From positions 124,001-188,000 of the forward strand of contig RWJK01001582.1 of the NCBI GenBank assembly GCA_004335835.1: a stretch of DNA of 64,000 bases, given 5' to 3'. The position numbers and the translations under genes were made by a program. Origin of the DNA: Scenedesmus sp. ARA3. Its lineage: Eukaryota; Chlorophyta; Chlorophyceae; Sphaeropleales; Scenedesmaceae. The stretch's first letter is position 1; every line of letters begins with the position of its first letter. Of this stretch, positions 1 to 50,805 are shown in pieces. Below the pieces are notes generated by a model that made no database searches, was not told where the DNA came from, and was given only the letters and a program-made list of their open reading frames with translations.

Positions 1-1222
1 CAGCACTGCAGCAGCAGCAGCAGCAGCAGCGCTGGCAGGCGGGGCCAGCAGCAGCGCCGACGCAGACGACCCTGTGGTGGCTGCTGCTGTTGCTGCTGCT
101 GAGGCGAAGCTGCTGCGGCGGCAGCTGGCTGCTGCTGAGAAGCAGGCTGCAGCCATGAAGGATGTGTTCAAGCAGCGCGTGAAAGCTTTCCGGGAGAGCT
201 GCAGGTGTGCAGAGACAGCTGCCCAGGTGCCCTGCCACAGCCCAGGCGGCTGCTGCAAGCACTGCTGGCTGTGCTGCTTTGTGCTGCTTTTCTGGCTGAG
301 GTGCCCTATAAGGTTTCTAGGTCTGCCTGCTTTGCTCGCCCTGCAACCAGTGCTGGCGGTCACCACGGATCAGGCTACCCGCCGCACCAAGCATCACCAT
401 GTTTTGTGCTGTCCCCTCTGTTCACTCCTCACCATGGCCAGCGGGGCGCTGTTTAGCTACCGCATGGAGACGGTGTCAAACCCACACACTCACAAACAAT
501 GTAGCCAACAAAACACAACTGCGATGGCATTGCTGTGCATTTGCTTTTTGCCCTCCTGCAGGGTGCTGTTTGGCTACCGCATGGAGATGGTGTCGGACCT
601 CTCCGCCTGTTGCTTGCCTAAACTAATTACCATTGTGCAATCATGCCTCTGTCTGGCCCCGCAGGGCGCTGTTTGGCTACCGCATGGAGATGGTGAGCGA
701 CCCCTGGGCTGACGTGGCGCACGCGCCCACCACCTACACGCTGACCTCGTGCTTCGGGCCCAAGGAGGACGTGCTCATGTTCAGGTGCGGCCACATTGTG
801 TTGGTGTGAGCAAGAGGGCTGCACATGCCTGCTTCAATGCTGTGTCTTGTCACGTTGAATTGTTTACAGCTTGCTACCCCTGTCACCATGTCGTGCAGCA
901 GGGCATACCAGACGCTTTCACATGCCACGTGGCGCAGTCTTGTAGCTGCTGCTGTGCGTTGGCTATGCACAGCAGCCCTGTACAGCAACGCCTGATGCAT
1001 GCAGAAACACCGCCAATTCCTTTCTGTCAAATCTAGCGCTGCTGCTGGCGCTGCCGCAGGTACCACCCTCAGGCGCAGCCGCCCTACAGCATCCTGAAGA
1101 CGCCCCTCAGCAAGAAGATGGCGCAGGAGGTGCAGGTGTTCATACAGAACTTCGCCAGCATCCCGGCATTCACAGCCAACCACACCATGACGCTGTTCCA
1201 GCAGACCACCTCAGGCGCGTGA
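1..1222 (+). CDS. MAD1: MAD1 spindle-checkpoint protein, C-terminal part (5' partial)
   Basis: Mad1 recruits Mad2 at unattached kinetochores in the spindle assembly checkpoint. Exons seen: 2-204 (open from the window edge), 665-784 and 1060-1222. All three join in phase and end at TGA 1220-1222, giving 161 residues. The visible part starts with an Ala-rich coiled-coil end (MKDVFKQRVKAFRESC), followed by the Mad1 C-terminal RWD-like fold. Family landmarks are FGYRMEMVSD, the TYTLTS strand, and the final helix with SIPAFTANHTMTLF, which matches the SIPAF-x-LTLELF ending of animal Mad1. The N-terminal coiled coil and the Mad2-binding motif lie left of the window. Intron 1 carries two copies of the start of the middle exon (separate entry). 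Identification is from conserved C-terminal motifs and is fairly secure. Confidence 0.85.
442..599 (+). repeat. Two decayed copies of the MAD1 middle-exon 5' edge
   Basis: Segments 442-478 and 560-599 repeat the first about 40 bases of the exon that really starts at 665 (GGCGCTGTTTGGCTACCGCA). The second copy keeps a CTGCAG acceptor. Neither has the downstream half of the exon or a usable frame. The real exon is chosen because only it runs on through the TYTLTS region to a donor. Confidence 0.85.
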
Positions 1223-1661
1223 GGCGCTCAAGGAAGCAATTTGATTGCATCAACCGTTCGTTGAGATTCAAGGGCTCAAAACAGTTTGCAGGCCAGTGTG
1301 CTAGGGTTTTGTCCTGTGCCGTGTGTATCTAGTGTGTAGCCAGGGGCCCTGTTGATGTGGTATGCGGCTGTGTGAGGCTGTAAGTACAGTTTGGGCTGCT
1401 GGCGTACATTATCATGGTGGTTGGTTGTCCATTGCGGAGTGTAACAGTTTTTGTTTGCGATGAGTGCGTCACACAGCACATTGAGCTGGCGCCGATGCGA
1501 CCATCACAAAACAGTATACCCTAAGAATGTTTCAAAAAATGTTTCTACACAGCACACAAACGCTGCCACGCCGCACCACCACCCAAAGCAAAAGAAGGCA
1601 CAACAAATAAAGGCATAACGAATGCAAGCAAAAAAATGCAAAGCAAAACAAACTGCCTCAC
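1223..1661. other. Gap between MAD1 3' end and the raffinose-synthase fragment
   Basis: No coding signal is recognised. A TGTAA polyadenylation-type signal lies at 1379-1383, 157 bases after the MAD1 stop, with another TGTAA near 1440. The stretch 1500-1660 is A-rich. The missing 3' exons of the raffinose-synthase-like gene should lie here on the minus strand but do not. Confidence 0.6.
1379..1383 (+). terminator. Candidate TGTAA poly(A) signal for MAD1
   Basis: TGTAA is the usual chlorophyte polyadenylation signal. This one is at a normal 3'-UTR distance from the MAD1 stop at 1222. Confidence 0.4.
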
Positions 1662-48200: not shown

Positions 48201-50805
48201 ACAGCCCGCTGAAGTTGCGGCTGCCTGCCAGCACCTGCCAGAAGCGCATGCCAGCATCAGACATGTCCTGCCGACCTGTAAGCAACATGGTGAAGAAATT
48301 GGCACAGCAAGCAGCACAGCAGAGTCGGCAACTGCCAGAAGCGCATGCCAGCACCAACAATCTTTTATCACCTGGCAGGTGACAAGGTTCAGCAATGCCA
48401 GAGGTGCAGCCAAGGCAGTGAGACGGTTGACACTGGTATGCCTCAGGCCATGCTTGTAGCTTGTCCGGCGTGCAGTGCGCCAGCTGTTGCTTCCACGTGC
48501 ACGTACAGTGTACAGTAAATTGTACAGTGAGCTATGAAGATATGACAGCTGGCTCTCTTACCTAGAAGCCTGCCAATAGTTGTGAACTCCATGCTGAGTG
48601 TGCCTGCCTCAGCCACATTGGTCTTCACATCCGTGATGGGTGTTGCCGCCCTGGCTGCTGCGTTGCCAAACGTCGCAAAGGGCGAGGGCATGCCACTTGT
48701 CGTGTTGAAGGACACCATTAGCCTGCGGCATAATGCACAGGGACAGAAGCGCGTGCAGCAAAAGCGGATAGGATCAGCAGCACCAATGCCATGGGTAGCG
48801 CAGCGTTTTGGCAGGGCATGGCAATGTGTTGAATCTCGCCTGGTCGGCCCAACCGCCTGGTGCCCAGTAGACTGTCATGTATGGCTTAAGCACAGCACAA
48901 CACAACTTCAGCCACAAGCATTACACATCCAGTCACACTGCTGAGTTGCAGTTGTACGGTACCAGGCATACCTTTCCTGAAGACGAGGCGCATGTACTGC
49001 TGTACCCGACATATGGACACACCTGTCAGCCAGCATCTCCACCTTTTGCAGGTACATGTCATCACCGCCGCTCAGGTAGTATGCAGACAGCAGGCCGCCC
49101 AGGATGCGGATGTTGACCTCAAAGAACTGCACCTTGCTGCCATCCTTAAACTCTAAGTGGTTGGCCACCCAGTGCCGCGCCTGCTGGTACTCCTCATTCA
49201 AGACTGCAATTGCAGCAGCGTGATGAATATGGTGCAGCGCGGGCAGGTTGAAGGCGTCAGCAGCTGCGGTACATGGCGCTTTATGACACATCACATGGTG
49301 TGTCATCTACAGCAGACAGCTTGACGGGACAAGCTGCTCCTGCAACACGCCATGGTGCCACCTGCAGCCATGTGCTGCGTGCACGTGGTGCGCGAGTGCA
49401 GGTGGTCAGAGCCAGTGCGTGGCAGACAAGGTCGCAAATCGGCGCCAGGTTGCTGTAGTTGTCTTCAACCCACATACTGCTTGCATGACAGTCGCTGCTG
49501 CTGCCAGCGCCCTGCCTGCTTCTGCTGCTACTGGTGACACATAAGCATGTGCTACCTGCCCTGGCTACATCCAAGCACTCAAACCACGATGCCAAGACAA
49601 ACTGTGATGTGCATACTGCGCTTCGATGGTGGGGCTAGCGCGCTGCCCACCTGATATGATGAGGGTGTCCAGGCTGTCAACGATTGTGAGCCCCAGGTTA
49701 AACCACGCCTTTGGTGTGTGGTTGATCACGTCCACCTCGTCACTGCCCCAGGCGTACTTCCTGCAAGCAGGCAACCCAGCAAGCAAGCAGGTGAGCAGAG
49801 ACATGGCGTGAGTGCAGGCCAAATTGCTGCACGGCTGCATGTTTCTAGTTGCAGCAGACCCTGCCAAGGCCTCAAGGCTGTATGCAGCAAGGTTTGGTGC
49901 TGCTTCACATCTTCGCGGCAAGGGCTTGCTGCAGCTCGCCTGCAACTATCCTGCAAGCTCTCCTGCAAGCATGCCCAGCAGAGCGCCAGCATGTGCACAT
50001 CTACCTGCCCACGGCGCTGGTCATGCAGCTAACGTAAGCACTGTGACTCATGCTCTGTGTGTAAACGCATACCGCACGCGCTTCCATGTTGCTTGGCAAG
50101 TCCTTGCCCTGTCAGCATGACTTACCTGTAGCCCTCCCAGCTCCAGCTGATTGCTTTGCGCACATGCTCCTGCCGCTGCTTTGCCGATGTGACACAGCCC
50201 AAGCCATCAGGCCCACAGCTGTAGTCCCCATCACAGATGCCTGTGCGCTGGCAGCGCTGCGAGTCATCATGTGGCGGTAAGCTGTACATAGGTGGCATGC
50301 TGCTGAATGGGTGAGCGGGCTTCTCAGGTTCCTGCTGTTGCTGCTGCTGCTGCTGCTGCTTGTGTTTGTGACCCCAACTGAGGTGCGCCAGCCGCGGATG
50401 CATCCGCCTACTGCTGATTGGGTTCAGCAGCACAGGCGCGGGCGCTGGTGCTGCTGCTGCTGCTATGTGCTGCTGAACAGGCAATACAGGCCCAGATACT
50501 CTGCTGCCACTGCTGCTTCTGCTTGCTGGTATACTGCTGGAGCTGTCGCCAGTTCCTGGTATACTGCTGCTCATTGCCTGAGGTGGAGAGACTGGTGGTT
50601 GGTAGGAGACCAACAGCACGTTCCACACACCCAGGAGTGACAGCACTGCCAGAAGTACAGCAGCTGCCAGTGTCAATGACACGATAGAGAGGCGTTGCCA
50701 CTTGGAACCTGCTGCGCTCCTGCGGCCTGACCCATCCCCAGATGAAGAAGAAATTCTTGGCAGCAAGGGTTGCCTGACAGCGTGCTGTTGCTGCAACCAC
50801 CCCAT
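45270..50805 (-). CDS. GH47 class I alpha-1,2-mannosidase (ER/Golgi, type II membrane)
   Basis: Nine exons, 50805-50126, 49760-49651, 49203-49023, 48722-48562, 48275-48076, 47319-47130, 46851-46259, 46047-45880 and 45413-45270, sum to 808 residues with all phases matching. The N-terminal cytoplasmic tail is followed by a signal anchor (about 42-68, [20 protein letters not shown]) and a low-complexity stem. The catalytic (alpha/alpha)7 barrel follows: [104 protein letters not shown] and [10 protein letters not shown] (the Ca-binding Thr). The enzyme trims Man9 N-glycans. Unusual points are an Ala/Gln/Ser-rich insertion of about 100 residues before [20 protein letters not shown], and an extended Gln/Ala tail after the NTEAHP block. 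Confidence 0.9.
45630..45830 (-). repeat. Two exact-period (123 bp) copies of GH47 exon 8 3' edge
   Basis: Exon ends plus donors occur at 45880 (true), 45757 and 45634, exactly 123 bases apart. Each copy repeats about 70 bases ([15 protein letters not shown] region) plus flanking intron. The copies keep the donor GTGCG or GTGCGA but carry substitutions such as ACCAATGAGG in place of the NTEA codons. Confidence 0.93.
47715..47980 (-). repeat. Two copies of GH47 exon 5 3' edge
   Basis: Exon end plus donor at 48076 (true), 47904 and 47721 (steps 172 and 183). Each encodes [17 protein letters not shown] or a close variant; the 47904 copy has a stop (TTTCTTTAGCAGTGG). The surrounding intron (GAACAGGCAGGCC...AGCACAGC) is repeated in each unit. 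Confidence 0.93.

What the first reader, a model, noticed from the sequence alone, without database searches (positions are those of the whole stretch)
1..50000. Recurrent exon-edge tandem duplication: introns filled with decoy splice sites and partial exons
In seven of the window's multi-exon genes (MAD1, raffinose-synthase-like, DUF3110, flavoprotein, AFG1, CPN60A, GH47), introns contain one to four extra copies of an adjacent exon's edge. The copy always includes the splice site (acceptor for 5' edges, donor for 3' edges) plus some intron, and always lies in the intron next to the exon it copies. About 30 copies are visible, with periods mostly of 100-260 bases. The genes are unrelated, so this is a genome process and not a gene-family feature. 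Consequences could include competing splice sites, poison-exon regulation, and a route to intron gain or movement of intron boundaries, because a duplicated exon segment that contains a splice site creates a new intron when the inner copy is skipped. I know of models of intron gain by tandem duplication, but not of a genome where nearly every gene shows it.
Basis: seen in the sequence. Interest (0 to 1): 0.92.

Follow-up and report, generated by a model that had tools for sequence, protein, structure and literature searches.

The report
Spare exon edges filling algal introns
In this green alga many introns carry extra copies of the neighbouring exon's edge, most with a working-looking splice site, which makes it a natural test bed for how genes duplicate, skip and perhaps swap their splice junctions.

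Summary
Confirmed, with limits. The window belongs to Tetradesmus obliquus or a near-identical strain. Eleven chaperonin genes modelled by spliced protein alignment (119 exons, 52 kb of intron) hold 87 short-period repeat arrays: 84 include exon sequence, 3 are intron-only, none is inverted. A shift test on the 83 arrays inside the models found 2 intron-only where about 31 are expected. Of 112 resolved copies 106 run exactly to the splice junction; 88 of 216 edges have at least one copy. The window and 20 other loci show the same bias more weakly with a home-made gene finder. 'Nearly every gene' is overstated: CCT6 has none.

Exon parts of copies change roughly as unconstrained DNA, so most look like skipped debris. 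Two facts go beyond that. In half the copies the intron flank is unrecognisable although the exon part is nearly as similar as in the others, and most of these still carry strong splice sites. Best reading: about 120-bp tandem duplications across splice junctions, skipped by splicing, with the exon part later exchanged between copy and real exon. Exchange is inferred, not shown; no RNA, strain alignments or other algae were available. Single boundary-crossing duplications are known; I found no report of this genome-scale form.

The parts
38907..39026 (+). CPN60A modelled exon 1 (real; the gene's first exons lie upstream of the model); its 3' edge 38981-39026 is copied at 39122-39167
   Evidence: spliced alignment; copy
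39122..39167 (+). copy of exon 1 3' edge with donor-like site
   Evidence: 95.8% HSP identity
39753..39909 (+). two copies of exon 3 5' edge (real exon 39991-40203); one modelled at 39866-39909
   Evidence: periods 110 and 235
40443..40527 (+). copy of exon 4 5' edge (real 40583-40667), period 140
41230..41490 (+). two copies of exon 6 5' edge (real 41569-41633); modelled one at 41427-41490
   Evidence: periods 142 and 282
41911..42249 (+). two copies of exon 6 3' edge (real 41679-41751); modelled one at 41911-41983
   Evidence: periods 232 and 490
42466..42536 (+). copy of exon 7 5' edge (real 42589-42659), period 123
42918..42990 (+). copy of exon 7 3' edge (real 42670-42742), period 248
43458..43560 (+). 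copy of exon 8 3' edge (real 43267-43368), period 191, one base longer and with one stop
438..695 (+). array at an exon edge of a Mad1-like gene (Pfam MAD match just under its cut-off)
21494..22096 (-). two arrays in the FAD-binding flavoprotein gene
25354..28500 (-). seven arrays in the AFG1-like ATPase gene
45620..48144 (-). two arrays in the GH47 gene

Best explanation
Short tandem duplications, about 110-130 bp per unit, repeatedly arise across exon-intron junctions in this alga. The duplicated edge nearest the rest of the exon stays in use, so the protein is unchanged and the inner copies become intron. The real exon is constrained while the copies change nearly freely (shown by divergence patterns). 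Inferred: because the real exon stays constant, copy and exon keep recombining within the exon part (gene conversion or unequal exchange). This refreshes the exon part long after the intron flank has decayed, and it lets a copy's splice junction occasionally become the real one, which keeps copies splice-competent. Introns grow as copies accumulate (association shown, causation inferred). Why intron-only duplications are so rare is not settled: either junction-crossing arrays form more often, or they survive or stay visible longer.
For: 84 of 87 arrays include exon, 0 inverted; 2 intron-only of 83 tested against 31.3 +- 3.7, minimum 20 in 500 shifts. Exon-edge probes hit their own adjacent intron 175 times (1.68 per kb), one randomly chosen non-adjacent intron per edge 5 times (0.05 per kb), the reverse strand 10 times (0.10 per kb). 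Near-neutral copies: copy-copy exon mismatch 0.155 (35 pairs, 15 of them from one CCT3 array) against real-copy 0.093 (106 pairs); in 9 copy-copy pairs with recognisable flanks exon 0.178 equals intron 0.177; codon-position mismatch 0.062, 0.067, 0.156. Exchange: copies with 10 bp or less of similar flank have 4-fold-site mismatch 0.177 (80 of 453), like 0.170 (56 of 329) in copies with 40 bp or more, yet their flanks retain only a faint similarity (9 of 34 donors above the 95% null, P 6e-5; 3 of 16 acceptors, P 0.008). Splice competence: copies found from seeds at least 12 bp inside the exon have GT in 55 of 65 and AG in 58 of 70 (chance 7% and 6%); in donors matching drops from 0.82 to 0.34 between intron positions +5 and +6. 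Introns with arrays have median 580 bp (n 62), without 284 bp (n 46); published mean for T. obliquus is 462 bp against 230-302 in four other green algae (PMC5966456, passages).
Against: No strain alignment, allele or read data: no exchange or promotion was seen happening, and the one DNA search for a second allele found none. Gene conversion should blur the edge of similarity; in donors the drop at +6 is sharp, in acceptors it is gradual. Mismatch is even along the exon part, so no crossover points show. Exon parts beside unrecognisable flanks are slightly less similar (mean identity 0.90 and 0.88 for donors and acceptors against 0.93), and the 17 intermediate copies have a higher 4-fold mismatch, 0.251. 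Copies are not exactly neutral: simulation fits omega near 0.6-0.65 (0 of 60 neutral runs as low as observed), single copies range from 10 synonymous: 0 nonsynonymous to 0: 10, and gaps are much rarer in exon parts (11 columns per 1,951) than in flanks (817 per 7,164), far beyond twofold. The rarity of intron-only arrays is not predicted by exchange alone.
Confidence: 0.45

Rival explanations
1. Ordinary neutral tandem duplication plus decay, with exon-edge arrays simply easier to recognise because the real exon does not change.
For: Copy-copy divergence equals intron divergence in the 9 testable pairs; copies with recognisable flanks obey the expected 1:2 substitution ratio of exon part to flank (0.077 against 0.174).
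Against: Arrays with still-recognisable flanks (38 copies) would be visible in intron interiors too, yet only 2-3 intron-only arrays exist. It does not explain decayed flanks beside well-kept exon parts and splice sites or the scarcity of gaps in exon parts.
Confidence: 0.2
2. The copies are kept by selection as splicing elements: alternative cassette exons, regulatory decoys or U1-binding sites.
For: Copies without recognisable flanks keep GT in 30 of 35 and AG in 13 of 16, with strong sites: donors median 6.1 bits against 7.4 real and 0.5 background, acceptors 6.9 against 9.5 and -0.2. At exon identity >=0.9 donor sites match their real partner much as unrelated real donors do, except +4 (0.61 against 0.37). 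Two deposited T. obliquus proteins contain inserted copy-like peptides (P0001, P0243).
Against: Exon parts change nearly neutrally; copies occur in unrelated genes; the inserted peptides may be annotation errors, as my own gene finder also reads copies as exons.
Confidence: 0.18
3. A process that copies DNA up to the splice junction itself, for example through an RNA intermediate or a nuclease acting at splice sites.
For: 51 of 106 edge-reaching copies have intron similarity of 10 bp or less, against 17 intermediate and 38 with 40 bp or more; one CCT1 copy is identical over 68 exon bases with only five further intron bases alike.
Against: Faint flank similarity remains in 9 of 34 donor and 3 of 16 acceptor cases; some splice signals differ from the partner while remaining consensus, which plain copying would not give; no such enzyme is known to me.
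Confidence: 0.12
4. Assembly artefact.
For: 1,567 contigs and no read data seen.
Against: Exon parts differ from the real exon by 9.5% on average (range 0 to 27%, 8 of 112 identical), with stops and indels; the deposited T. obliquus protein P0001 carries the peptide of a copy in the same array; the pattern obeys exon edges.
Confidence: 0.02

Closest known systems
Tandem duplication across an intron-exon boundary in a potato RdRp gene (Ma, Lan and Niu 2016, PMC4974935; abstract read)
   Same: The duplicated segment crosses an intron-exon boundary and brings its splice signals along.
   Different: One gene and one event, with a new intron reported; here 112 copies in 10 of 11 genes and no new intron shown.
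AGGT-type intron gain by tandem duplication of exon sequence (described in the PMC4974935 abstract)
   Same: Tandem duplication and splicing out of one copy.
   Different: There an exonic AGGT segment supplies both splice sites of a new intron; here copies contain an existing junction and lie inside an existing intron.
Introners (PMC9860276, listing and passages)
   Same: Large-scale change of intron content.
   Different: Introners are mobile elements that make similar introns in many genes; here similarity is confined to the neighbouring exon.
Tandem alternative (mutually exclusive) exons (recalled)
   Same: Duplicated exon sequence in tandem.
   Different: Those are whole exons with both splice sites; here each copy has one edge only.

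Membership tests
Boundary-crossing tandem duplication | direct orientation, adjacent copy, segment spans an exon-intron junction | tested here: met
   0 inverted pairs in the 11 genes; 58 of 87 arrays with at least 8 bp on each side of a junction; 106 of 112 copies reach the edge
Boundary-crossing tandem duplication | copied segment includes intron flank | tested here: inconclusive
   38 of 106 with 40 bp or more of similar intron, 17 intermediate, 51 with 10 bp or less; faint similarity in some of the last
Intron gain by tandem duplication | a new intron at a new position in the spliced gene | not testable with these tools
   no transcripts or related algal gene structures; modelled exon chains skip the copies
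Introner | similar intron sequence in unrelated genes or loci | tested here: not met
   5 hits of exon probes in non-adjacent introns of the same gene against 175 in the own intron; 2,451 bp of CPN60A matched nowhere else in the genome except its own adjacent copy (that search skips very common words)
Mutually exclusive tandem exons | whole exon duplicated with acceptor and donor | tested here: not met
   in 0 of 112 modelled copies does the aligned segment run past both ends of the exon

The most novel reading that the evidence does not exclude
The alga carries a reservoir of spare, splice-competent exon edges: real and intronic edges exchange by recombination, copies are promoted to be the functional junction, and the threat or fact of promotion is what keeps intronic splice sites intact in otherwise decayed introns.
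Probability: 0.3. Interest if true: 0.93.

Novelty: new variant of a known kind. Interest (0 to 1): 0.82.

Why it matters
It would turn intron growth, splice-site choice and junction turnover into something that can be counted in one organism: many datable duplications across splice sites, most with intact competing sites. It tests how a spliceosome ignores near-perfect decoys. It also warns that gene models of this alga may contain copies read as coding exons.

Tried and rejected
Simple purifying selection on copies as coding sequence was rejected as the general rule: one CCT5 copy differs by 10 synonymous and no nonsynonymous changes, but the whole set fits omega near 0.6-0.65, and copy-copy divergence equals intron divergence in the 9 pairs where this could be tested. 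Long-term neutral decay with indels was rejected as the sole reason for lost donor flanks, because the loss of matching is abrupt at +6; for acceptors the decline is gradual and this argument does not hold. Crossover points inside the exon part: no gradient of mismatch along it. Sequence motif at exon-internal breakpoints: none evident by eye in the base table. Second allele in the assembly: none found with one 2.45-kb query. Reverse-strand and non-adjacent controls gave few hits; the 'opposite intron' control (85 hits, 0.89 per kb) was set aside as confounded because 100-bp probes from the two edges overlap in exons under 200 bp. Kinesin and EF-Tu family searches show a few overlapping profile hits but cannot count copies: the chaperonin family search showed only a few overlapping hits where 112 copies were later resolved. 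The home-made gene finder predicts too many exons (leave-one-out: 197 of 238 exon boundaries exact, with extra exons), so one search is support only. Rows dropped: modelled exons under 25 nt; 163 copy alignments merged to 112; 106 of 112 anchored at the edge; 102 with 8 or more codons in the omega test; 17 of 152 interior-seeded copies ending before the edge; 4 of 87 arrays outside the modelled genes in the shift test.
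Full report
Where it is. The window is C1192:124001-188000 of an 87.27-Mb, 1,567-contig genome. The modelled CPN60A protein is 100% identical over 443 residues to a Tetradesmus obliquus protein (P0121), the CCT1 model is 98% identical to one (P0241), and most CCT5 exons match T. 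obliquus P0001 at 91-100%. The source is T. obliquus or very near it.

The repeats are real. Self-comparison of the window gives 27 direct pairs under 2 kb apart and 1 inverted. Twenty further loci plus the window, 244,652 bp, give 70 clusters, 3 inverted pairs and none in shuffled sequence. The loci were taken at one fixed position on every 80th contig, not by a random draw. Load is uneven: L013 has none, L012 five and L014 seven clusters. Some of the clusters (L017, L021) look like other kinds of repeat.

Exon positions were fixed by spliced protein alignment, giving 11 genes: CCT1 to CCT8, CPN60A, CPN60B and a mitochondrial-type CPN60 (gene names from similarity and recall). The CPN60A exon chain aligns over residues 2-421 of 443 with its best PDB match, a chaperonin, without large gaps, so the copies are not needed for the protein. 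These 11 genes are one functional class, chosen because the first family query was a chaperonin; they are not a random sample. The other CCT models rest on a distant CCT5 protein as guide, so single boundaries may be wrong.

Exon-edge specificity. Of 87 arrays, 58 straddle a junction by at least 8 bp on both sides, 26 contain exon with less intron, and 3 are intron-only, all in CCT1, one of them beyond the last modelled exon. Sliding arrays along genes gives 31.3 +- 3.7 intron-only arrays against 2 seen among 83, with 4 arrays outside the models set aside. In the window and 20 loci with predicted exons, 84 of 106 arrays touch an edge against 61.9 +- 4.4 expected (maximum 74 in 200 shifts), 9 are exon-only against 7.4, and 13 are intron-only against 30.6 +- 4.6 (minimum 21). 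Of 216 edges in the chaperonin genes, 88 have at least one copy: CCT1 15 of 20, CPN60A 8 of 16, CCT6 0 of 24.

Anatomy of a copy. 112 copies: 50 upstream of the exon they copy and 62 downstream, in 10 of the 11 genes. The exon part has median 46.5 bp and maximum 102 bp; copy-to-exon distance peaks at 110-130 bp with a second mode near 230-260 bp. Upstream copies carry the acceptor edge and downstream copies the donor edge with few exceptions, as expected if the outer splice pair must rebuild the protein. No copy runs past both ends of an exon.

What the copies are doing. Mismatch by codon position is 0.062, 0.067 and 0.156. This looks like coding constraint but is mostly what the real exon's own synonymous change plus free change of the copy would give: copy-copy exon mismatch (0.155, 35 pairs, 15 from one CCT3 array) exceeds real-copy (0.093), and where flanks are recognisable copy exon and intron diverge equally (0.178 and 0.177, 9 pairs). 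Simulation puts copy omega near 0.6-0.65, with 5 stops against about 10 expected under neutrality. Gaps are much rarer in exon parts (11 columns per 1,951) than in flanks (817 per 7,164). So the copies are near neutral for substitutions, with departures that I cannot assign; indel-prone intron repeats could explain part of the last.

The puzzle. In 51 of 106 anchored copies intron similarity ends within 10 bp of the junction. Their exon parts are slightly less similar on average (0.90 donors, 0.88 acceptors, against 0.93), but 4-fold sites show the same divergence as in copies with long similar flanks (0.177 and 0.170; the 17 intermediate copies have 0.251). A CCT1 exon 8 copy is identical over 68 exon bases and then only GTGAG matches. 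Seeds placed away from the edge, to avoid choosing intact edges, still give GT in 55 of 65 and AG in 58 of 70, with a sharp drop after +5 in donors and a gradual fall in acceptors. Site strength is a little below that of real sites and far above background. In donors with exon identity of at least 0.9 the +4 position, where A and C alternate, matches the partner in 0.61, between independence (0.37) and descent. Some flank similarity survives, so at least part of these flanks are old and decayed beside a young exon part. Exchange of the exon part is the simplest account; site-directed copying is the main alternative.

Other sequences. P0001 has 15 extra residues that match a CCT5 copy here except for one residue and are absent from the spliced model. 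Two T. obliquus CCT1 entries under one locus tag differ by nine residues that would result from a 27-base cassette ending at a copy's donor and starting at an AG inside it; I read that AG from the sequence printed. Whether those models rest on transcripts I could not see.

Intron size. Introns with arrays have median 580 bp, without 284 bp; repeats cover 19,614 of 51,951 intron bp. A comparison table gives mean introns of 462 bp in T. obliquus and 230, 302, 284 and 270 in Raphidocelis, Monoraphidium, Chromochloris and Chlamydomonas (PMC5966456, passages).

Literature. Eight searches listed no paper whose title or abstract start describes this pattern; I looked inside five papers only. The word intron does not occur in the main text of two Scenedesmus genome papers (PMC7590803, PMC7955037). 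Two T. obliquus genome announcements (PMC5255914, PMC5552973) were seen only as listings. The closest case is the potato gene (PMC4974935, abstract). Most subscription papers are not covered.

Verdict. The mechanism is open; exchange between real and spare edges is my preferred account at 0.45.

Noticed in passing
P0001 (CCT5) and P0243 (CCT1), deposited T. obliquus proteins: Both carry short inserted peptides that match or would result from intronic copies; my gene finder also inserts copies into CPN60A. Public gene models of this alga may be contaminated by copies.
   Followed up: partly
introns of the 11 chaperonin genes: Telomere-like TTTAGGG (11, shuffle mean 2.3, maximum 6) and CCCTAAA (7, mean 0.9, maximum 4) are enriched; CCCTAAA sits near intron 3' ends. 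It may overlap a branch-point motif.
   Followed up: partly
L031 (CCT6): No copies at any of 24 edges, unlike its ten relatives; copy load varies strongly between genes.
   Followed up: no
L036 4574-5065 (CCT5 exon 7): A copy differs from the real exon by 10 synonymous and 0 nonsynonymous changes, and a second copy shares many of the same states, as if the real exon had changed.
   Followed up: partly
L017 2362-7177 and L021 1711-4194: Longer arrays of other periods (about 180 bp in L017) that look like satellites or protein repeats, not exon edges.
   Followed up: no
window 53725-53847: Tandem repeat of 54 and 21 bp without a predicted exon, possibly a coiled-coil coding repeat.
   Followed up: no
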